64,000 nt of DNA from Anodontia alba (taxonomy: Eukaryota; Mollusca; Bivalvia; Lucinida; Lucinidae): the NCBI GenBank assembly GCA_964016985.1, contig OZ024835.1:1557501-1621500 (forward strand), read 5' to 3'. Shown here in pieces: positions 1 to 42,899 of this stretch; position 1 is the first letter of the stretch; each line of letters begins with the position of its first letter. Made by a program: the position numbers and the translations under genes. The notes beneath the pieces are model-generated. The model was not told the DNA's origin. It searched no databases and saw only the letters and a program-made list of their open reading frames with translations.

Positions 1-806
1 AATAGCCGCTTGTGCAACTCTGGACTTGTGCACAGGGGCATTATCATGCAAAAGAAGGACAACGGCAGCTAGCTTTCCCCTTCATTTTTCTTTTAATAGC
101 AACCATTAATTGTTTAATGACATTGGCATAGTATTCTCCTGTAATTGAAGTACCAGCAGGTACTCTATCAATAGAATCCCTTTGGAGTCCCAAAACACTG
201 TGGCCATTACCTTGCTGGCTGATGGTTGGGTACGGAATTTCTTAGGTGGGGGTGAGCCAGGGCGCTTCCATTGCTTGGACTCTTTTTTAGTATCTGGGTC
301 CCAGTGGTGAAGCCAAGCCAAGTTTCATCTCCTGTTACAAGACGAGTGTGAAAGTCTTCTGGATTGGCATTGTACACTTCCAGAAGTTCTTGATTTGACT
401 CCACCCTTTGCTGAGGAACTTGCATGTTCAGGTTTCTGGGTACCCACCTGGCAGATACTTTTGACATGCCTAAATGTTCATGGATTATAGTGTAAACACT
501 TCCATTAGAAATACCACATTCTGAAGCAAGTTCGGCAACTTTGATTCGGCGATTGTTTAGCATAAGTCTCTCAACACGGTCGATCATCTCCTGGCTGATG
601 ACATCAGCAGGGCGACCTGGCCTTGGGTCATCTTCTAAGGAGTCTCACCCACGTTTAAATTCTGCTGATCACTTTGCCACTGTGGAATACTTTGGGCTAC
701 TATCACCATACACATCAGCCATGCGCGGATGGATTTCTTTGGCCTTTGCACCCTCCTTAGTGAGGAACTTTATGACTGCTCTGAACTCAATATTCTGACT
801 TTCCAT
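1..806 (-). pseudogene. Decayed mariner-family transposase, cut by the window edge
   Basis: Read on the minus strand from the ATG at 806-804, the translation starts MESQNIEFRAVIKFLTKEG and continues through the mariner N-terminal helix-turn-helix region (PGRPADVISQEMIDRVERL, SNGSVYTIIHEHLGMSK). It reaches the first catalytic Asp in GDETW near 320-335 and the second in LLHDNAP near 34-48. The frame is broken: TGA codons interrupt it near 645 and 678, and the reading frame changes between the GDETW and HDNAP blocks. The C-terminal catalytic Asp would lie left of the window. A complete mariner transposase is about 345 residues; about 270 are represented here. Family assignment is firm from motif order. 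The element is certainly inactive as encoded. Confidence 0.9.
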
Positions 807-3758: not shown

Positions 3759-3878
3759 CTGGTATTGGAGAGTGGTCCTCTAGACTTCTAATCTGTACCA
3801 CAAAGCTATGTATCCCATGGCATTTTCCTAGACTATACAACTGGGCCATCAGAACAACATAGTTACTTGTCTTTCCCA
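3759..3878 (-). CDS. ACOX1: Acyl-CoA oxidase (ACOX1-like), exon 5
   Basis: The minus strand reads CTTTTTCAG / TGGGAAAG at the acceptor and CCAG / GTATTG at the donor, giving 120 nt that enter with two bases of a codon and leave with one. The peptide is (M)GKTSNYVVLMAQLYSLGKCH followed by GIHSFVVQIRSLEDHSPIP. This matches the segment after the WPG motif of peroxisomal acyl-CoA oxidases (GKTSN.A..LAQL...GKC.G.H.F). It belongs to the middle beta domain that contacts FAD. The phase joins exon 4 exactly. The following exons (expected to begin with a GI/V.VGDIGPK-like segment) were not found between 1 and 3758 and should lie left of the window. Gene assignment as ACOX1 rather than a sister acyl-CoA oxidase rests on these exons only. 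Confidence 0.93.
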
Positions 3879-5249: not shown

Positions 5250-5357
5250 TTGCTCCTGGCCAGAATTTCATTGAGGTCAAGGTTGGACTGTTAATAACAA
5301 ATTCTTCTGTTGAAGGGTCATAGGTGGCTGTTGTTTCCAGTCCTCTGATATTTGAAC
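5250..5357 (-). CDS. ACOX1: Acyl-CoA oxidase (ACOX1-like), exon 4
   Basis: Acceptor TTTCAACAG / GTTCAAAT and donor GAGCAA / GTAAGT bound 108 nt, entering with two bases and leaving with one. The peptide is (G)[19 protein letters not shown] followed by [16 protein letters not shown]. The family signature [18 protein letters not shown]...KWWPG is almost fully kept, with Phe replacing the first Trp of WWPG. In the family this stretch is the start of the beta domain, and the Gly after WWP helps hold the flavin. It joins any of the three upstream exon-3 copies, all of which end in CATG, to restore HG at the splice. Intron 4 (3879-5249) carries SINE copies and a minisatellite. Confidence 0.95.
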
Positions 5358-7700: not shown

Positions 7701-7820
7701 ATTTTTTTTTCTTATTTCTCCACATAAAACATATGTTGTGGGTACTCATTGGTAGCGCATAACGGAGGTGCTTCCAATGAGTACCACATTATATGTTATC
7801 ATGGAGAAATAAGAAAATAT
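7701..7820. mobile_element. Hairpin MITE copy (GTACTCATT palindrome)
   Basis: TTCTTATTTCTCCACATAAA, ATATGTTGTGGGTACTCATT, then the inverse arm AATGAGTACC..ATATGTTATCATGGAGAAATAAGAAAATAT. The inner part (GGTAGCGCAT / GGTGCTTCC) is no longer fully paired. Confidence 0.82.
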
Positions 7821-8902: not shown

Positions 8903-9260
8903 CAGTCAAACCTCAATGGCTTGAATATCTTTGGAACCATGGAAATTCATTCCAGACATGGGTAGTTTGAGCCACTAGTGGTAATCATGGCACAAGTTCA
9001 GGAAGCAAATAGCGATAATTTAGGGAAATTGTTTCGATTTTCTACACAATGATTGTATGTTGAGTGTACTCATTAGAATTGCCTCAATAAGGCAATTCTA
9101 ATGAGTACACACAACATACAATCATATAATAAAATAGGAAAATATCATTAAATATTTGTTTTCTTGAGCTATTGGAAGACTTTTGTAGGGACAGAAAAAA
9201 AGAGTTCGAACCATCCACGGTAAACGAGCCATCCGTGTTCGAGCCATTGAGGTTATACTG
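8903..9260. mobile_element. Pogo/Tigger-like MITE carrying a GTACTCATTAGAA hairpin
   Basis: Left end CAGTCAAACCTCAATGGCTT is preceded by TA; right end is ..GAGCCATTGAGGTTATACTG, its imperfect inverse. The CAGT start and TA context suggest the pogo branch of Tc1/mariner. In the middle, 9056-9118 is a palindrome (TGTACTCATTAGAATTGCC and inverse) of the same design as the independent hairpin MITEs. It lies directly downstream (in transcription) of exon 3.3. A related element is at 61833-62392. Confidence 0.72.
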
Positions 9261-9338: not shown

Positions 9339-9499
9339 CATGACCTAGTTCTGTCTGTGCATAAGTCCCAACAATCTCGTAGTTTTCGGCCTTTTTACCA
9401 TATTTAAGATACTGTTCCTTGTTTCCCTGTTTTACAATGTGAGGTGTGAACATTACCTGATGCAAGCCAAGAGGATTCGATTCATGAGCTGCCATTGCC
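9339..9499 (-). CDS. ACOX1: Acyl-CoA oxidase, alternative exon 3 copy 3 (last in transcription order)
   Basis: Acceptor TTTGTGTAG / GGCAATGG and donor GGTCATG / GTAAAT bound 161 nt. One base completes the split codon from exon 2 (GA+G), 53 codons follow, and one base is left for exon 4. The peptide runs AMAAHESNPLGLHQVMFTPH, then IVKQGNKEQYLKYGKKAENY, then EIVGTYAQTELGH. The GTYAQTE.GHG block is the flavin-binding motif of acyl-CoA oxidases, preceded by the alpha-domain helix that packs over the substrate. It is clearly related to the copies at 10517 and 12677, closest to 10517 (shared PLGLHQVMF and KKAEN.EI). Frame, motifs and splice sites are intact, so it looks functional. The alternative, a decayed duplicate exon, is disfavoured by the lack of any lesion. 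Confidence 0.93.
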
Positions 9500-10006
9500 C
9501 TACACAAATAGAAAATATTGAGCCTCCTATTATCCATTCCACAAAAGACACCCTTCAACCAAGACTCAAGAAATAGCGGTATGTGTATTTCACCATATTA
9601 TCAGAGAAAGTTGTTAAAGGCTCCATATTCATCAAAAATCGTCATTTTTTGTCCAAGAAAGGTTTAATAAAATTGATATATGGTATCAATACGATCACAA
9701 AATGTGCCATATGACAGCCTGTAAAATTTCAGTTACTTTCTCATTTTTGAACTGGATCAAAAATGAAACGACCATTTATCGTACCTCTGAATTAATTGTT
9801 GGCAACATTAATTCAGTGTTAGGATAAAAAAATCATTTCACTTTTGATCCAGGTCAAGAATAAGAGAAAAATAATGAAAAATAAGTAAAAATATTTAATA
9901 ATTTTATCTGCTGTATATTTTCCCAGCATACTAAGTAATTAAGGAGATAAGATATCCCAATATTTTGAGTAACTATGGTAAACCCCCAAATATTCAGAAT
10001 AAATAT

Positions 10007-10454
10007 GGTACTCATTTTATCTGGAGTCTTGGTTTAAGGCAAAAACAACAGTTGGGCCACAAAGAAATATGGTACCCATTTTATCTGGAGTCTTGGTTTA
10101 AGGCAAAAACAACAGTTGGGCCACAAAGAAATATAGTACCCATTTTATCTGGAGTCTTGGTTTAAGGCAAAAACAACAGTTGGGCCACAAAGAAATATGG
10201 TACCCATTTTATCTGGAGTCTTGGTTTAAGGCAAAAACAACAGTTGGGCCACAAAGAAATATGGTACCCATTTTATCTGGAGTCTTGATTTAAGGCAAAA
10301 ACAACAGTTGGGCCACAAAGAAATCTGGTACCCATTTTATCTGGAGTCTTGGTTTAAGGCAAAAACAACAGTTGGGCCACAAAGAAATATGGTACCCATT
10401 TTATCTGGAGTCTTGGTTTAAGGCAAAAACAACAGTTGGGCCACAAAGACAAAA
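10007..10454. repeat. 64-bp tandem repeat between alternative exons 3.2 and 3.3
   Basis: Seven copies of a 64-bp unit (GGTACCCATTTTATCTGGAG, TCTTGGTTTAAGGCAAAAAC, AACAGTTGGGCCACAAAG..) start at 10007, 10071, 10135, 10199, 10263, 10327 and 10391, nearly identical from the second onward. The array ends about 60 nt from the splice donor of exon 3.2. The first unit is the most diverged. Confidence 0.96.
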
Positions 10455-10516
10455 GCAAGCCAATGCAGAAGCAAGGAATGCTAGCAAAATAGGATCAGAA
10501 TGGTAAAACAAGTTAC

Positions 10517-10677
10517 CATGACCAAGTTCCGTCTGCGCGTATGTTCCAAGAATCTCATGGTTTTCTGCCTTTTTGACATATTGATCTACCTGTTCTCTGG
10601 TTCCCTGTCGCTGAATGGTGGGAATGAACATGACTTGGTGCAAGCCCAGGGGGAAAACCTCATGGCTTTGAGCTGCC
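10517..10677 (-). CDS. ACOX1: Acyl-CoA oxidase, alternative exon 3 copy 2
   Basis: Acceptor TATATTCAAAG / GGCAGC and donor GGTCATG / GTAACT bound 161 nt, in the same phases as the other two copies. The peptide is AAQSHEVFPLGLHQVMFIPT, then IQRQGTREQVDQYVKKAENH, then EILGTYAQTELGH. It keeps the flavin-site motif YAQTELGHG and differs from its neighbours mainly in the first 40 residues. The polypyrimidine tract at its acceptor is weak (TTTTATATTCAAAG), which may make its use regulated; that is inference. A hairpin MITE lies about 90 nt upstream of it in the transcript and a 64-bp array about 60 nt downstream. Confidence 0.93.
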
Positions 10678-10768
10678 CTTTGAATATAAAACATATCATT
10701 ACCGTAAGCACCCAAAGGAACAAAGCTCAGATAAGACATTTTTTCCAACAAAAAAGTTTCAATAGCTT

Positions 10769-10877
10769 GCTTATTTCTCAATGAAAACATATGTTGTGGG
10801 TACTCATTAGAAGTGCCTCAGGCACTTCTAATGAGTACCCACAACATATTTTGTCATTGAGAAACAAGAAAAATATT
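10769..10877. mobile_element. Hairpin MITE just upstream of exon 3.2
   Basis: CTTATTTCTCAATGAAAACA, ATATGTTGTGGGTACTCATT, AGAAGTGCCTCAGGCACTTC, then the inverse arm to GAGAAACAAGAAAAATATT. The central 60 bp is a perfect or near-perfect palindrome. It would form a strong hairpin in the pre-mRNA about 90 nt before the exon 3.2 acceptor. Confidence 0.9.
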
Positions 10878-11033
10878 ATGTGGAAACTCCTTCTTATCTG
10901 TATGAAAGTAATCTACCACATTACCTAAACTTTTCAGCAGGCCACATTTTAAATTTCTCTAATTTTTTTCTAGTATTTTTTTTTACAGTTTAAATTTTAC
11001 AGTTTGAATAAGTGGGTTATCCAGAAAAGCATT

Positions 11034-11366
11034 GTTTTCTTATTTCTCCATGAAAATATATGTTGTGGATACTCATTAAAAGCTCATTAAAAGCATCTTG
11101 GTGAAGCATTTTCGGGTTATTGTTTAACGACCCTTAAACCTGTGTGGGTCATTTTGTGTAATCTCCCGAAGATACTGAGAGGAGCAAATAAGAGGGAACA
11201 TAGGAGGTTCCAGAAAAAAATGAATGACAGTGCAGAACCAGAATACATATGCTAACATGCCCTGTTCCTTTACCTGCTGTAAATACAGAGGCCCTAAGCA
11301 CCAACCTGTCACCAGACTACCCATGACATAATTATGTAGTCATGGAGAAATCAGAAAAATATTATT
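11034..11366. mobile_element. Hairpin MITE copy, interrupted
   Basis: Left arm TTTCTTATTTCTCCATGAAA, ATATGTTGTGGATACTCATT is at 11034-11090. The matching outer right arm (TCATGGAGAAATCAGAAAAATATT) appears at 11340-11366. About 250 bp of unrelated sequence lies between. Confidence 0.6.
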
Positions 11367-11461
11367 CAGTTTTAGCTATAAGAAAAGCATCTAGTCTAGA
11401 GTTATGGGGTTAATATAATGAGATTCCAGTCTGAACAACAGTAGAGCAACCAGAGGATTGG

Positions 11462-11668
11462 TTAACGCTTGCTAATAAATTAAGACGCCACACCCACTTC
11501 TAATTTTCAGCCAGTCAGATTACTTGATCCAGATTATTGATATAAATTCACATACCTAATGGCAAACAGTGTAGATCCAGATCAGTTGGCTTCTTCAGAA
11601 GCCAACTGATCTGGATCTATACTGTTTACAAAACAGGACATACCCGGGTTCAGCAGGACAAGGGTTAA
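11462..11668. mobile_element. TTAA hairpin MITE (piggyBac-like ends)
   Basis: TTAA at 11462 and 11665 bound an element with the family's TAAGACGCCACACCCACTTC, a hairpin (CAGTGTAGATCCAGATCAGT, TGGCTTCTTCAGAAGCCA, and inverse) and right end GGGTTCAGCAGGACAAGGG. The left terminus is degenerate. Confidence 0.82.
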
Positions 11669-11807
11669 TTAAGGAGGAGTAACCGGTGATAATTCTGGGA
11701 TAATTTTCTCCAGTTCTCCATAAAATCATATGTTGAGGACAGTGCTTAGATAAGCTGTTTTGTGGGTATTTACCCAATTAAAATTTATGAATAAAACGTG
11801 AAACAAT

Positions 11808-12200
11808 AATACTCTGCCATCATCATGTCGTGGGCAGATAACTCTGTGAAAAATTGACAAAATTTGCCAATGAGCAATCCCAAAGCAGATCTCTACAATA
11901 TCAATGCACATATCAAATTTGGTGACATTTACTAAAGTTATTGTCCAGAAATGAAAATATGGACTTGTCGCGGACAGATAAATCTGTCCAAAATTGACAA
12001 AATTTGCGAATTAACAATCCCAAAACAGATCTCCACAATATCAATGCACTCACTAAGTTTGGTGAAAATCCATTGACATTTATTCAAGTTATCATCCAGA
12101 AACAACAATATGGACGGATGTAAGACAGATGGATGGACAGACACACAGACAGCCACTGTAATACCATAATACCCGCCACTATCATGTGGCCGGGTATAAA
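11808..12200. repeat. Interspersed repeat, two partial units, ending in a GGACAGAC-rich stretch
   Basis: Two related halves each carry GACAGATAA..CTGT, AAAATTGACAAAATTTGC and CACAATATCAATGCAC. It ends with ATACCCGCCACTATCATGTGGCCGGG, a short hairpin. Same family as 2120-2355 and the fragment at 16540-16603. Confidence 0.7.
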
Positions 12201-12423
12201 GAACAATTCAAATTAAATTTATGAGTTAAATACCCAAAGATCAGTAATTATTTTACCCATTCACAAAATAGTGTACCCAACCCCCTTCCCCACACCGGCA
12301 CACCCCTTACAAAAAAAACCCAAAAAAAACCCTGATATCCCATTAAATGAGAAATGAAAAATGGGTGGGTTAAAAATAGCCAAAGAATACCAAATTTCTC
12401 AAAAAACCTTATTTAAGGCACTG

Positions 12424-12481
12424 ATTGTGGGTACTTATTTGAAGTGCCCACAACATACGCTTTTATGGAGAAATAGAAAAT
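12424..12481. repeat. Hairpin MITE remnant
   Basis: TTGTGGGTACTTATTTGAAG joined directly to TGCCCACAACATACGCTTTT and GGAGAAATAGAAAATAT: a copy with most of one inner arm deleted. Confidence 0.65.
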
Positions 12482-12676
12482 ATAAACCTAATGACTGTAT
12501 TATCCCAGAATTATCCACAGATACTCCTCCTTCACCACTCCTTTGCTCTATGTCATTAAATGGACCCCAACTACATTATTTTAAAGGGACTGTCCAGTAT
12601 CAGCTGTCAGTTTGTGTCTTCCAATGTAGACCTGTTTCTTTTTTCATTTTCTTTTTCCTTTCAGTTTTAGACCTAC

Positions 12677-12837
12677 CATGACCTAATTCAGTCTGGGCAT
12701 AAGTTCCAAGTATCTTGAACTCCATGGCTTTCTCCAAGAGAGGTTTTGTTGCCTCAGTCCCCTGCATCATTAATGTGGGGATAAACATCCCTTGGTGGAG
12801 ATTAGTAATGGGATCATCTTCAAATGGGGTATTCGCC
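12677..12837 (-). CDS. ACOX1: Acyl-CoA oxidase, alternative exon 3 copy 1 (first in transcription order)
   Basis: Acceptor TTATTTCTCTGTCAG / GGCGAA (the best polypyrimidine tract of the three) and donor GGTCATG / GTAGGT bound 161 nt with the same phases. The peptide is ANTPFEDDPITNLHQGMFIP, then TLMMQGTEATKPLLEKAMEF, then KILGTYAQTELGH. The MFIPTL..QGT stretch resembles the common vertebrate ACOX1 exon 3 product, whereas the two other copies have PLGLHQVMF. Mammalian ACOX1 is known to use two mutually exclusive exon-3 versions, so this copy may correspond to one ancestral form and the 9339/10517 pair to the other; that mapping is inference from a few residues. Confidence 0.93.
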
Positions 12838-13117: not shown

Positions 13118-16100
13118 TGGCTTGGTGTTCTATCTATTGTGGTTTGGCGGACGATCCTTTCTTTATAAGGACAACGGCAAAGCACACTGCCCGAATGCGG
13201 GAACGACGCGCATACTCAGATGCCGTAAAAGAACTGAGTTGGGATGTCAGCTAGGACAGGCGATCCCGTAAAAACAATTGTTCCAAAAATTCTACATGGC
13301 AAGAAGAAAAATAGGTTCAGAGTTAGGCGGTGCCAACAGACATTCTGTTGGTAACGTCTCCGGCTTGGCCTCCTGTCAGGTGTGGGAGGCAGGGTCGGGC
13401 CATTGTGGCGAATCCAGCAAGCACCTGAGGAAATTCAGGGTGGGAACACTCAATGTGAACACCCTGAGAGGAAGAGTTTGTGAGGTAGTGGAAACACTAT
13501 CCCGCAGGAAAGTGGATGTCTGCTGCATTCAGGAGACCAGATACGGTGGTGACAGCTGCCGCACAATCAAGGGCAAGGACACCAGGTACAAGCTCTACTG
13601 GTCAGGAAATGACAAAGGCACTGCTGGTGTAGGAGTGTTTGTGGCAGAAGAGTGAAAAGAGAAAGTTTTTGAGGTTCAGAGAGTCTCAGACAGAATTATT
13701 TTAGTGAAACTCATAGTCGGCCAGCGTGTGGTTACCTTTCTGTCTGTGTATGCCCCACAGAGTGGTCTAAGTGATGAGGTTAAGGACCTGTTCTTTGATC
13801 AGCTGCGTGCTGTGACTGCCAGGATCCCAGCATCAGAATTTCTGATCCCATGTGGAGATTGGAATGGCCATGTTGGCCGTGCAGGCACTGGATACAAGGA
13901 AGTGAATGGTGGGATGGGGTATGGCAGGCCGGAACCAGATGTTGAGGGTGAGAGAATCCTAGAGTACGCCCTAGCATTTGACCTGCTTCTTGGGAACACA
14001 TGTTTCAAGAAACGTGACAGCCATCTCATCACATACAAGTCTGGAAATATAGCCACACAGAGAGACTTCATCCTTTTCTGTAGGACCATGCGCAAACTTG
14101 TCACAGATGTAAAAGTGATCCCTGGTGAGGAAGTAGCTCTGCAACATCAGCTTCTTGTATGTGACATGAGGATTCATGTGCCTCCAAAATCCAAGCGCAA
14201 GTTCACCCCTAGCCTCAATGTTTGGAAGCTTAAAGACCCTCAGACAAGCAATCATTTCCAGGAGGTCTTCAACTTGCATGTGAGCACATCTGCAGCTGTA
14301 GCTGATGGGGCCACTGAGGATATCTGGAACAACATCAAGACTGGACTGCTCAAGACAACTGAGGAGGTATGTGGCACAACTCGGCCACACCGTTGGCATC
14401 GTGAAACCTGGTGGTGGAACGAACACGTGGAAAGGCCATTGCTGCCAAGCGGACAGCTTTCAAGGCCTGGAAGGCTGGTAAAGGCACTAGGGCATCATAT
14501 GATGCAGCCAAACGAAATGCCAGACATGCAGTGCACAATGCTTGTAAAGAAGCCCGTAAGAAGGTCTACGAGAATATTGACCTAAAGCCTTTCAGAAGTT
14601 TACCGCCTTGCTAACCAGTTTAGAAGAGAGAACACTGATGTTGTTGGTGACAAACCTGTGAAGAATGATGCAGAAGAGATGTCAATGAGCGAAGACTCAA
14701 AGCAGAAGGCCTGGCTGAAGCACTACCAAAGGCTTCTCAATGTTGAGTTTGACTGGGACCCAGACCACCTGTCATATCAATCAGCAGTGGAAGGCCCGCC
14801 CATCCCAATCACCATTGATATGATTAAGAAGGCTATCTCACAGATGAAGGCAGGCAAAGCACCGGGCCCATCAGGCATAGTGGTGGAGATGATAAGAGCG
14901 GCCGGTGACATGGGCGCCTCCATGATCTGTGACCTCGCAGTGGCATCATTCGTGATGGCAAGGTACCCTCTGACTGGGAGCAGAGTTTCATTGTCTGCCT
15001 CTACAAGGGAAAAGGGGACGCATTGGAAAGGGGCAACTACCGCGATCTCAAGCTGACAGAGCAGGTTATGAAAATCCTGGAGAGGATTGTGGACGGCCTC
15101 ATCAGACAGTTGGTGTCAATTGACGATTCCCAGTTTGGCTTCGTCCCAGGCAGAGGCACTACAGACGCAATCTTTGTTGTCAGGCAGCTGCAAGAGAAGT
15201 ATCTAGCTGCCAATAAGAGACTCTACATGGCTTTCGTAGACCTGGAGAAGGCGTTTGATTGAGTGCCTCGGAAGGTCATCTGGTGGGCGCTGAGAAAACT
15301 TGGTGTGGAGGAGTGGATTGTGCGACTGGTGCAGGGGATGTATGCAAATACACGGAGCCGTGTCCGTGTTGGTGAGGGGTACAGTGAAGAGTTTGAAGTG
15401 AAGGTTGGTGTTCATCAAGGATCAGTACTCAGCCCACTGCTCTTCATCATTGTGCTTGAAGCCTTATCACGAGAGTTCCGCTCTGGGGTCCCCTGGGAGG
15501 ACCTCTATGCCAATGACCTTGTTATCATTGCTGAATCGCTTGAGGAATGTGTCAGGAGGCTCTTGATTTGAAAGAAGCAATGCAGAAAAAAGGACTGATA
15601 GTAAATGCAGGAAAGACAAAGATCATGATCTGCGGTACGGGACTGGACCTCCTGCAGAGTTCAGGCGAGTTTCCATGCGCTGTCTGTCGCACTGGAGTGG
15701 GTAGCAACAGCATCTTCTGCAATGGCTGCAAACACTGGGTGCACAAGAAATGCAGTGGGCTCAAGCGCTTGAAAAAGGACCCTGACTATAGATGTACACG
15801 GTGCCAGGGAACTGCACGCCCCTTGGATGGCAGACCACAGAAGGAAGTCCAGGTCGGACCTGACAAGCTTGAGGTGGTAGCTTCCTTTTGCTACCTAGGA
15901 GACATGCTCTCAGCAGCAGGTGGCTGTGAACTTTCAACCACAACACGTGTGAAAACCGCCTGGAAGAAGTTCAAGGATCTGCTACCAGTCCTCTCTTCAC
16001 GCCACCTCTCTTTCAAAACACGTGGCCATGTGTACAGCTCTTGTGTGCGGAGCGCAATGCTCCATGCCAGCGAGAGTTGGCCATTGACAAAGCCAAACCT

Positions 16101-16535
16101 TCAGCGTCTGCAGCGAAATGACAGGGCAATGATCAGACAGATCTGCAATGTCAGGCCGCAAGACATTGTCACCACCAGATCCAATGATCTACTTGTGCGG
16201 CTTGGCATTGAGGATCTGGACCTCATTTTGAAGGAGAGAAGACTTCGATAGTATGGACATGTGGAACGCTCCAGTGGTGCAATCAAGACAGCCTTTGACA
16301 TACAGGTTGATGGAAAGCGTGGGCCTGGGAGGCCCAAAATGACATGGAAGCAGCTGACAGAGAGGGATTGCAGAGAGTGGAAGCTCTCGGCTATCAACCC
16401 TCATGATAGACGTACCTGGAGATCTAGTGTGAGATCTGCCATGCGTGCAGCAAGCCAGTTACCTGGAAGGGGGCCCACTGATGTGGATGCTGCCCCTGTA
16501 CCTGCATGTTAATCAAAAATCCGATTATGATGATA
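13118..16535 (+). mobile_element. Near full-length non-LTR retrotransposon (APE endonuclease + RT, RTE-like), dead
   Basis: Homology with a second copy at 41389-42899 defines the left end (GATGGCTTGGTGTTCTA) and the right end (AATCAAAAATCCGATTATGA followed by a TGATA-type short repeat). There is no poly(A) tail. The copy sits in intron 2 of the acyl-CoA oxidase gene, opposite to its transcription. The RTE-like assignment rests on the single APE-RT order, the RWYGHVER-type C-terminus and the microsatellite tail. A sister APE clade is possible. Confidence 0.88.
13278..16512 (+). pseudogene. Retrotransposon polyprotein: APE endonuclease, reverse transcriptase, zinc finger
   Basis: Endonuclease signatures: RVGTLNVNTLRGRVCEVVET, CCIQETR and SVYAPQSG, then GDWNGHVG. 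Reverse transcriptase: KAPGPSGIVVEMIRAAGD, FGFVPGRGTTDAIFVVRQLQ, LYMAFVDLEKAFD, VHQGSVLSPLLFIIVLEAL. The catalytic YADD box reads YAND (near 15508), losing one metal-binding Asp. After the RT comes a Cys/His cluster, CAVCRTGVGSNSIFCNGCKH and WVHKKCSGL (about 15676-15805), resembling a PHD-type finger, and then the C-terminal RGPGRPKMTWKQLT region. In-frame stops are at 13653 (TGA), 15260 (TGA in FD*VPRK, a CGA to TGA change) and 16249 (TAG). Frame shifts occur near 14430, 14590, 14940 and 15550. It cannot make an active protein. Confidence 0.92.
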
Positions 16536-17969: not shown

Positions 17970-18132
17970 TCTCTCAGAAAGAACATATCTAGATTGTTTG
18001 TGATACCCATATCCTTGATCAGCTTGTTAAGATATACATTCTTTTTCAGTCCAGTGTCATACTCATCCTCCCTTGATCTGTTCCACCAGGGCTTGAATGA
18101 CTGCAGATACTTGTCTTGAAATACCACATTCT
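17970..18132 (-). CDS. ACOX1: Acyl-CoA oxidase (ACOX1-like), exon 2
   Basis: Acceptor TTCTTTTGACAG / AGAATG and donor CTGAGAGA / GTAAGT bound 163 nt. Two bases complete the codon begun by exon 1 (C+AG), 53 codons follow, and GA is left for exon 3. The peptide is NVVFQDKYLQSFKPWWNRSR, then EDEYDTGLKKNVYLNKLIKD, then MGITNNLDMFFLR. This fits the N-terminal alpha domain of acyl-CoA oxidases (a D.xF region, the SR...Y..A.K helix and the G....L end before exon 3). Similarity here is weaker than in exons 3 to 5, as expected for this part of the family. Assignment relies on position, exact phase fit on both sides and motif order. Confidence 0.88.
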
Positions 18133-39444: not shown

Positions 39445-39559
39445 GTAAGTATCGCCTTCGCCTGACATTTGTTTTGCCTCCATAGATGACCTCCGTCAGT
39501 TTCTCTGGATCGAATGTGGCATTATTCCGTTCCTTAGCCAAGTCTGCATTCACTGCCAT
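39445..39559 (-). CDS. ACOX1: Acyl-CoA oxidase (ACOX1-like), exon 1 with start codon
   Basis: The minus strand opens with ATGGCAGTGAATGCAGACTT (start at 39559) and ends CGATACTTAC / GTAAGT, 115 nt, leaving one base for exon 2. The peptide is MAVNADLAKERNNATFDPEK followed by LTEVIYGGKTNVRRRRYL. Acyl-CoA oxidases begin with the same pattern: a short M..DL..ER..A.F....LT..I.GG....RRRR block. The frame is open further upstream, but this Met aligns with the family N-terminus and has A at -3 relative context (TCATCATGG), so it is chosen. The reaction of the family is FAD-dependent desaturation of acyl-CoA to trans-2-enoyl-CoA with H2O2 release in peroxisomes. The exons present give about 222 of an expected 660 or so residues. 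Confidence 0.9.
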
Positions 39560-41388: not shown

Positions 41389-42378
41389 CATATCATATCA
41401 TATCATAATCGGATTTTTGATTAACATACAGGGGCAACATCCACATCAGTGGGCCCCCTTCCAGATGGCTGGCTTGCTGCACTCATGGCAGATCTCACAC
41501 CAGATCTCCAGGTACGTCTATCATGAGGGTTGATAGCCGAGAGCTTCCACTCTCTGCAATCCCTCCCTGTCAGCTGCTTCCATGTCATCTTGGGCCTCCC
41601 AGGCCCACGCTTTCCATCGACCTGTATGTCAAAGGCTGTCTTGACTGCACCACTGGAGCGTTCCACATGTCCATACCATCGGAGTCTTCTCTCCTTCAGA
41701 ATGAGGTCCAGATCCTCAATGCCAAGTCGCACAAGTAGCTCATTGGTTCTGATGGTGACAGTTTCTTGCGGCCTGACATTGCAGATCTGTCTGAGCATTG
41801 CCCTGTCATTTCGCTGCAGACGCTGCGGGTTTGGCTTTGTCTAAGTCTCGCTGGCATGGAGCATAGCGCTCCGCACACAAGAGCTGTACACACGGCCACG
41901 TGTTTTGAAAGAGAGGTGGTGTGAAGAGAGAACTGGTAGCAGATCCTTGAACTTCTTCCAGGCGGTTTTCACACGTGTTGTGGTTGAAAGTTCACAGCCA
42001 CCTGCTGCTGAGAGCATGTCTCCTAGGTAGCAAAAGGAAGCTACCACCTCAAGCTTGTCAGGTCCGACCTGGACCTCCTTCTGTGGTCTGCCATCCAAGG
42101 GGCATGCAGTTCCCTGGCACCGCGTACATCTGTTGTCAGGTTTTTTTTTTTTTTCAAGCGCCTTTGTCATTTCGTGGAGCGCTGTGGTGCAGTGGTAAAG
42201 CGTCGGACTCGAGATCGAGAGGTACCGGGTTCGATCCCCACTAACTGCAAGTGTTGTTTCCTTGAGCAAGAGACTTTATCCACATTGCTTAGTACTGGTT
42301 TCTACCCAGGAAAAAAGAGGGCCACATGGAAGATTAGTACTAGATTACTAAATGTATTACCCTCTATAAATAAAGTCG

Positions 42379-42411
<33 letters not shown>

Positions 42412-42899
42412 TCCTGACCAGTACCTAGTGTCCTTGCCCTTGATTGTGCGACAGTTGCCACCACGGCACCTGGTCTCCTGAATGCAGCAGACATCCACTT
42501 TCCTGCGGGATAGTGTTTCCACTACCTCGCAAACTCTTCCTCTCAGGGTGTTCACACTGAGTGTTCCCACCCTGAATTTCCTCAGGTGCTTGCTTGATTC
42601 GCTACAATGGCCCGACCCTGCCTCCCACACCTGACAGGAGGCCTAGCCGGAGACGTTACCAACAGAACTTTGCTGTCTGTTGGCATCGCCCAGCTGTGTA
42701 CCTATTCTTCTGCTTTCCATATAAGATTTTGGAACAACTGTTTTTACGGGATCGCCTGTCCTAGCTGACATCCCAATTCAGTTCTTTTACGGCATCTGAG
42801 CATGCACGCCGTTCCCGCACTCGGGCGGTGTGCTTTGCCGTTGTCCTTATAAAGAAAGGATCGTCCACCAAACCACAATAGCTAGAATACCAAGCCATC
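41389..42899 (-). mobile_element. RTE-like retrotransposon, internally deleted copy
   Basis: Minus-strand relative of 13118-16535: the 5' end and start of the endonuclease (RVGTLSVNTLRGRVCEVVET near 42580-42500) are joined to the post-RT part (from GCGCTTGAAAAA, 42160) and the C-terminus (RGPGRPKMTWKQLT; tail of TGATA repeats at 41389-41410). Compared with the first copy, the segment equivalent to about 13619-15765 is missing, with GC shared at the junction. RWYGHVER is intact here, unlike in copy 1. Confidence 0.9.
42174..42412 (+). mobile_element. tRNA-derived SINE with (ATT)n tail, inserted in the retrotransposon
   Basis: GTGGTGCAGTGGTAAAGCG (A-box) and ACCGGGTTCGATCCCCACTA (B-box) are followed by a body of about 150 bp and a tail of about ten ATT units. 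ATTTC at 42169-42173 and 42409-42413 flanks it as a likely target duplication within the element's endonuclease region. A different family from the SINEs at 56-63 kb. Confidence 0.88.

What the first reader, a model, noticed from the sequence alone, without database searches (positions are those of the whole stretch)
9339..12837. Three alternative versions of exon 3 in an acyl-CoA oxidase gene
Seen: three intact exons of exactly 161 nt (12677-12837, 10517-10677, 9339-9499), each with good AG/GT sites, identical phases and a 53-residue product ending GTYAQTELGH, lie in series between exon 2 and exon 4. Known: mammalian ACOX1 uses two mutually exclusive exon-3 forms that change chain-length preference. 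Three in one gene would be an expansion of that switch, changing the segment in front of the flavin motif in an otherwise fixed enzyme.
Basis: partly seen in the sequence, partly recalled or inferred. Interest (0 to 1): 0.87.

Follow-up and report, generated by a model that had tools for sequence, protein, structure and literature searches.

The report
Clam fat-oxidizing enzyme, three swappable exons
In what is likely a bivalve, the gene for the fat-oxidizing enzyme ACOX1 carries three intact, homologous versions of one exon, and only an mRNA that keeps exactly one of them stays in reading frame, so the gene would likely make three enzyme forms predicted to differ in the part that holds the fatty acid.

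Summary
On the minus strand lie three 161-nt exons with AG/GT sites, the same phases and 53-residue products ending GTYAQTELGH, between single-copy exons 2 and 4. The gene runs beyond the window. I modelled all of it: 14 exons plus two extra exon-3 copies, 55 kb, three possible 667-residue ACOX1 proteins ending ARL. Skipping exon 3, or joining two or three copies, shifts the frame and hits a stop by codon 177. All three copies show protein-level constraint. The gene's nearest relatives are heterodont-bivalve ACOX1. Copies 3b and 3c are closest to bivalve exon 3. Copy 3a is divergent, of unresolved origin, and lacks a glutamine kept in 40 of 40 aligned homologues. None of 180 retrieved homologues shows three copies; two tandem copies appear in vertebrates, a sea urchin, a sea slug and Mya. 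Best reading: a three-way, likely mutually exclusive exon-3 switch, an enlarged version of the two-way vertebrate ACOX1a/1b switch. Transcripts, exclusivity and changed substrate preference are untested. New variant of a known kind.

The parts
39445..39559 (-). ACOX1 exon 1 (ATG at 39559), 115 nt, donor gtaagt
17970..18132 (-). ACOX1 exon 2, 163 nt, leaves two bases of a split codon, donor gtaagt
12677..12837 (-). Exon 3a, 161 nt, first and most divergent copy (ANTPFEDDPITNLHQ...GTYAQTELGH)
10517..10677 (-). Exon 3b, 161 nt (AAQSHEVFPLGLHQ...GTYAQTELGH)
9339..9499 (-). Exon 3c, 161 nt (AMAAHESNPLGLHQ...GTYAQTELGH)
5250..5357 (-). ACOX1 exon 4, 108 nt (shared by all modelled isoforms)
3759..3878 (-). 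ACOX1 exon 5, 120 nt; exons 6 to 14 follow outside the window (contig C16 1556414 down to 1542115)
10001..10449 (.). Seven 64-nt tandem copies in the intron between 3b and 3c, beginning 67 nt past exon 3b; role unknown
   Evidence: partial complementarity to 9552-9591 upstream of 3c not significant

Best explanation
A single ACOX1 gene, likely of a bivalve, carries three homologous copies of exon 3 in series, each of which fits the reading frame alone, and they are likely spliced as mutually exclusive alternatives to give three oxidase isoforms that would differ in acyl-CoA preference. Shown by sequence: the three 161-nt exons share phases, fit the same exon 2 and exon 4, and each gives a full-length 667-residue enzyme on paper; inclusion of none, two or three copies shifts the frame. 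Inferred: the spliceosome uses each copy in some tissue or condition, and wrong combinations are removed by nonsense-mediated decay. Inferred from a model of a homologue: exon 3 encodes a loop, two helices and the first FAD-binding strand, so swapping it would change the wall of the acyl pocket while leaving the flavin motif intact. Not determined: what chooses the exon. Crowding in a short intron (smallest gap 1017 nt) and mixed U2/U12 sites are not the device.
For: Single gene, exons 1, 2, 4 and 5 single copy. Exactly three exon-3 copies in 104 kb. Frame arithmetic: 161 nt is 2 mod 3; no copy gives a stop at codon 106, two copies at 162 or 177, three at 177. Splice-site scores of the three copies lie within the range of the gene's other sites. 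Constraint: 3b-3c dN 0.26, dS 1.93 (saturated; dS of the 3a pairs not computable); 0 of 20000 neutral simulations matched to overall 3b-3c divergence and 0 of 5000 matched to third-position divergence, for each of three pairings, retain the observed residues. In 3a versus 3b, 17 of 29 identical residues use a different codon. The same protein segment is doubled in tandem in 27 of 180 retrieved proteins (23 named vertebrates, 2 without an organism name but vertebrate-like, one sea urchin, one sea slug), plus Mya P0021. Mouse and human isoforms that differ only in exon 3 differ in tissue level (mouse) and substrate (recombinant human) (PMC11178532, passages). Exon 3 maps to residues 94-146 of a model with mean pLDDT 90.6, best PDB matches 2ddh, 1is2 and human 7q84/7q86.
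Against: No RNA evidence of any kind. 3a lacks one residue near position 120 and has no Gln at 122, which is kept in 40 of 40 aligned homologues, so it may be altered or failing; a search with 3a gave at best 58% identity over 98% of the segment (61% over 72% for an unnamed protein). No docking/selector pairing was found: the candidate tested was matched by 24 of 300 shuffles. No three-copy case in 180 homologues, though clustering at 90% identity hides isoforms. Codon-position asymmetry for 3b-3c alone is modest (p 0.019). [quoted passage not shown] The model stretch 144-152 next to the FAD loop has pLDDT under 50.
Confidence: 0.68

Rival explanations
1. Two-way switch plus a relic: 3b and 3c are the working alternatives and 3a is an old copy that is being lost or makes a weak enzyme.
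For: 3a has the lowest profile score (53.5 against 80.3 and 74.2 bits), the longest end branch of 48 rows (1.12), a compensated +1/-1 residue change and no Gln at 122.
Against: 3a keeps an open frame, good splice sites (acceptor score 7.69) and the flavin motif; 0 of 5000 neutral simulations retain its identity to 3b or to 3c, so it was constrained for much of its history.
Confidence: 0.2
2. Only one copy is spliced in normally; the other two are unused or serve as 'poison' exons whose joint inclusion throws the frame and lowers ACOX1 output.
For: Each double or triple inclusion gives an early stop, as a poison arrangement would.
Against: A poison exon needs no conserved protein sequence, yet all three copies conserve protein; each alone keeps the frame.
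Confidence: 0.09
3. Assembly error or separate genes: the copies belong to different loci or haplotypes misjoined.
For: Bivalves do expand ACOX1 by gene duplication (PMC9332717, passages); the genome also has a second ACOX gene on C8.
Against: Copies differ at 32 to 48% of aligned nucleotides, too much for haplotypes; exons 1, 2, 4 and 5 occur once; the C8 gene has its own single exon 3 in the 60 kb examined.
Confidence: 0.03

Closest known systems
Vertebrate ACOX1a/ACOX1b exon-3 alternatives
   Same: Same gene and same protein segment; isoforms of equal size that differ only in exon 3 (PMC11178532, passages). Tandem copies visible in read-through models. All five predicted FAD residues and 28 of 55 positions kept between the human forms (PMC9741552, passages).
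   Different: Two copies there, three here. 3b and 3c are closest to bivalve exon 3. Expression and substrate differences are reported for mammals and untested here.
Eastern oyster alternative oxidase (CvAOX) duplicated exon 10
   Same: A bivalve oxidase with a tandem duplicated exon used one at a time; the first copy is the divergent one with changes near functional sites, as 3a is here (PMC5589949, abstract).
   Different: Different enzyme, last exon, two copies, shown by mRNA and stress response.
Tandem-duplicated mutually exclusive exons in general (FGFR2, Dscam and others)
   Same: Adjacent homologous exons of like length and phase. [quoted passage not shown] Human clusters of three to ten exist (PMC5740500, passages).
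   Different: No docking/selector pairing detected here; exclusivity not observed.
Bivalve ACOX1 gene expansion (scallops, oyster)
   Same: Diversifies ACOX1 in bivalves; two scallop species have four ACOX1 genes each (PMC9332717, passages).
   Different: Whole genes there; exon copies in one gene here. Exon 3b, searched against this genome at E 0.001, found only this gene and the C8 gene.

Membership tests
Peroxisomal acyl-CoA oxidase 1 (ACOX1) | ACOX domain architecture over the full length | tested here: met
   PF14749, PF22924 and PF01756 above cut-off in the 3a isoform; PF02770 at 33.1, just under its cut-off 33.3
Peroxisomal acyl-CoA oxidase 1 (ACOX1) | Groups with animal ACOX1 in a tree without exon 3 | tested here: met
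   In a 14-row set with 13 rows of Mercenaria, Ruditapes, Mactra, Mya and Dreissena, SH-aLRT 99; with Sinanodonta 100 (quick tree of 38 chosen rows, midpoint root)
Peroxisomal acyl-CoA oxidase 1 (ACOX1) | C-terminal peroxisome signal | tested here: met
   Model ends ARL; that ARL is an accepted variant of SKL is recalled
Mutually exclusive tandem exons | Neighbouring homologous exons with the same phases and like length | tested here: met
   Three of 161 nt
Mutually exclusive tandem exons | Shared single-copy flanking exons | tested here: met
Mutually exclusive tandem exons | Junction reads from each copy to both flanks, none between copies unless frame is lost | not testable with these tools
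   No RNA reads available
Frame/NMD-enforced exclusivity | 0, 2 or 3 copies disrupt the frame | tested here: met
   Early stops in all five combinations; decay itself not testable
Steric or U2/U12 exclusivity | Very short intron between copies or mixed splice-site types | tested here: not met
   Gaps of 1999 and 1017 nt; all sites GT-AG and no donor resembles the U12 consensus as recalled
Dscam-type docking/selector exclusivity | Selectors at each copy complementary to one docking site, conserved between species | tested here: inconclusive
   Array versus upstream of 3c: 24 of 300 shuffles as good; no second species' DNA to compare
Vertebrate ACOX1 exon 3I/3II pair (common origin) | Copies orthologous to 3I and 3II | tested here: inconclusive
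   3b and 3c with 16 bivalve rows at SH-aLRT 96 in a quick tree, but in no starred set in the careful tree. 3a: trees holding it with 3b and 3c, or with vertebrate 3II, both score above the free quick tree (by 11.75 and 4.96 log units; p-AU 0.764 and 0.625)

The most novel reading that the evidence does not exclude
Exon 3 of ACOX1 is a hot spot that animals have duplicated again and again (vertebrates, sea urchin, sea slug, Mya, and this bivalve) to build substrate-specific oxidases from one gene. This gene has reached the ceiling of three copies that reading-frame policing allows, with 3a giving a third, chemically new acyl pocket without the otherwise invariant glutamine.
Probability: 0.3. 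Interest if true: 0.68.

Novelty: new variant of a known kind. Interest (0 to 1): 0.52.

Why it matters
If true, one gene would supply three peroxisomal oxidases that share everything except the acyl-facing segment: a natural domain-swap experiment on chain-length choice. It would show the ACOX1 exon-3 switch, known from zebrafish to humans, evolving independently and further in molluscs, beside the gene duplications that other bivalves use. It also offers a clean test of whether reading-frame policing caps such clusters at three copies.

Tried and rejected
RNA docking/selector search: 165 inverted-repeat pairs lie in the exon 2-to-4 stretch, the 25 longest shown, many of them hairpin elements repeated over the window. 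One pairing, between the 64-nt array after 3b and the stretch before 3c, was tested and matched by 24 of 300 shuffles; rejected as evidence. Other flank-to-intron energies had no shuffle control; the strongest were hairpin elements upstream of 3b.

Searching for kin of 3a alone: 6 hits among 16 candidates, best 58% identity over 98% of the segment; no orthologue of 3a seen.

Three-copy fused query (best 120 of 6480 shown): no three-copy relative. Of 180 proteins, by anchor motif, 143 hold one, 36 two and one none. Nine of the 36 have the motifs 383 to 686 residues apart and were set aside as joined genes, leaving 27 (spacing and organism names read by me). P0021 of Mya is the one without the motif; its two copies were found by eye.

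Trees of exon 3 (48 rows, from 41 chosen proteins plus the three copies; 56 rows): 54 columns, most forks open or weak, and constrained trees beat the free one, so the free tree was not optimal; 3a cannot be placed. In one search the Tegillarca and P0006 rows were dropped before building. In one search proteins with two motifs were left out.

Structure of the window's own isoforms was not requested, because spliced proteins are not among the sequences the tool says it takes; a homologue (P0002 with 39 others) was modelled instead.

Literature searches: their listings and the passages I opened held no report of three ACOX1 exon-3 copies or of a mollusc ACOX1 exon-3 duplication; the library holds open-licence papers only.
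Full report
Observation. Each is 161 nt, flanked by AG and GT, and the second frame is open, giving 53 residues that end GTYAQTELGH. tblastn of exons 1 to 5 against the window finds exons 1, 2, 4 and 5 once and exon 3 three times. A profile from 215 exon-3 segments of homologues finds only these three in 104 kb of the contig and one in 60 kb around a second ACOX gene on contig C8.

The gene. The window is bases 1557501-1621500 of contig C16 of a 1.86-Gb assembly. With a Ruditapes protein as guide and splice sites read from the DNA, the gene runs from the ATG at window position 39559 to a stop 15.4 kb below the window, in 14 exons plus two extra exon-3 copies. With any one of 3a, 3b or 3c it gives a 667-residue protein ending ARL. 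Pfam finds three ACOX domains above cut-off in the 3a form, with the middle domain at 33.1 against a cut-off of 33.3. In a quick tree of 38 chosen rows without exon 3 it joins 13 rows from Mercenaria, Ruditapes, Mactra, Mya and Dreissena (support 99), then Sinanodonta (100) (root at the midpoint). These are heterodont bivalves and a freshwater mussel (recalled), so the animal is most likely a heterodont bivalve; the species is not known.

Frame logic. Exons 1 and 2 leave two bases of a codon over, and exon 3 leaves one; 161 leaves remainder 2 on division by 3. With no copy the first stop is at codon 106, with two copies at 162 or 177, with three at 177. One copy at a time is the only productive choice. 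[quoted passage not shown] Gaps of 1999 and 1017 nt and GT-AG sites without a U12-like donor (consensus recalled) rule out crowding and mixed spliceosomes. Splice-site scores of the copies lie within the range of the gene's other exons: donors 4.9 to 6.3 against 3.9 to 11.0, acceptors 2.2 to 7.7 against -2.3 to 14.6.

Are all three kept by selection? 3b and 3c share 36 of 53 residues, with dN 0.26 and dS 1.93, the latter saturated; dS of the 3a pairs could not be computed. 3a shares 29 of 52 with 3b and 25 of 52 with 3c; of the 29, 17 use a different codon. In neutral simulations started from one copy and run to the observed third-position divergence, 0 of 5000 kept as many residues, in each of three pairings. 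A second design gave 0 of 20000 for 3b and 3c. These tests show constraint over the history of the pair, not that each copy is used today. Codon-position asymmetry for 3b-3c alone is modest (27 of 106 against 24 of 53 mismatches, p 0.019).

What the swap changes. A model of the Mercenaria homologue P0002 from 40 sequences has mean pLDDT 90.6 and matches rat 2ddh and 1is2 and human 7q84 and 7q86 best. Exon 3 covers residues 94-146: the end of one helix, a loop, helices 104-117 and 120-131, and strand 137-140 with the start of the flavin loop. The last part is identical in all three copies from G137 on; the loop and helices vary. In the alignment used, 3a has one extra residue before helix 104-117, lacks residue 120, and has Ala at 122, where all 40 aligned homologues have Gln. 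That this alters acyl preference is inference from position and from the mammalian case. The mouse isoforms that differ only in exon 3 differ in tissue level, and of the recombinant human pair only ACOX1a acts on DC6-CoA (PMC11178532, passages). Another paper calls the human isoforms relatively similar in activity and tissue distribution and their specificity unclear (PMC10864527, passages). In the human pair 28 of 55 residues and all five predicted FAD residues are kept (PMC9741552, passages).

Comparison. Three protein searches gave 180 proteins (only the best 120 of 1963 and 120 of 6480 were shown). By anchor motif none holds three exon-3 segments and 36 hold two; nine of these are 383 to 686 residues apart and were set aside as joined genes. 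The other 27 look like tandem exon-3 copies read through by gene prediction: 23 named vertebrates, two unnamed but vertebrate-like, Lytechinus and Elysia. A Mya model, P0021, also joins two nearly equal copies. The two Elysia copies pair with each other (98) and so do the two Lytechinus copies (91), which speaks for repeated independent duplication (quick tree). 3b and 3c lie among 16 other bivalve rows (96) and pair weakly (87) there; in the careful tree they pair at 90/75 and no starred set holds any of the three. By BLAST the best partners of 3b and 3c are Mya and Mercenaria segments, 67 to 70% identical. 3a is unplaced: holding it with 3b and 3c, or with the vertebrate second form, gives trees that score higher than the free one by 11.75 and 4.96 log units (p-AU 0.764 and 0.625), so a common origin of the three copies fits somewhat better but is not shown. 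Bivalves elsewhere expand ACOX1 by gene copies (PMC9332717, passages). An oyster alternative oxidase has a two-way duplicated exon whose first copy is divergent (PMC5589949, abstract).

Limits. No RNA was available. The protein collection is clustered at 90% identity, so isoforms of one gene usually appear as one row, and absence of three-copy relatives is weak evidence. A count of all ACOX genes in this genome did not complete by the server; the two answered searches show this gene, the C8 gene and weak places with stops inside on C12 and C3.

Verdict. The reading as a three-way exon-3 switch is likely but unproven. It is a new, enlarged variant of a known switch rather than a new kind of system.

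Noticed in passing
window 13272-16512 (+): The intron between exons 2 and 3a holds, on the opposite strand, broken reading frames that look like an endonuclease/reverse-transcriptase retrotransposon (name by eye; the 309-residue frame at 13656-14585 had no Pfam match); similar letters recur at 41421-42642 (by eye).
   Followed up: partly
window 207-644 (-): Mariner-like transposase fragment beyond exon 5 (name by eye; weak HTH_32 match, E 0.0003, 21.7 bits against a cut-off of 33.7).
   Followed up: partly
window 10761-10877, 9049-9125, 7728-7817, 12430-12480: Repeated hairpin elements with arms like CTTCTAATGAGTACCCACAACATA in the exon-3 introns; one ends 83 nt upstream of exon 3b.
   Followed up: partly
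window 10001-10449: Seven 64-nt tandem copies, 98% alike, begin 67 nt past exon 3b. A genome search for the unit did not complete.
   Followed up: no
L012 (C8:92638376-92638513) and L018: A second ACOX gene on contig C8 with one exon 3 in the 60 kb examined; it resembles the Pinctada P0006 type by eye.
   Followed up: partly
P0150 (Elysia marginata) and P0110 (Lytechinus pictus): Gene models with two tandem exon-3 copies in a sea slug and a sea urchin; each pair groups together, suggesting separate duplications.
   Followed up: partly
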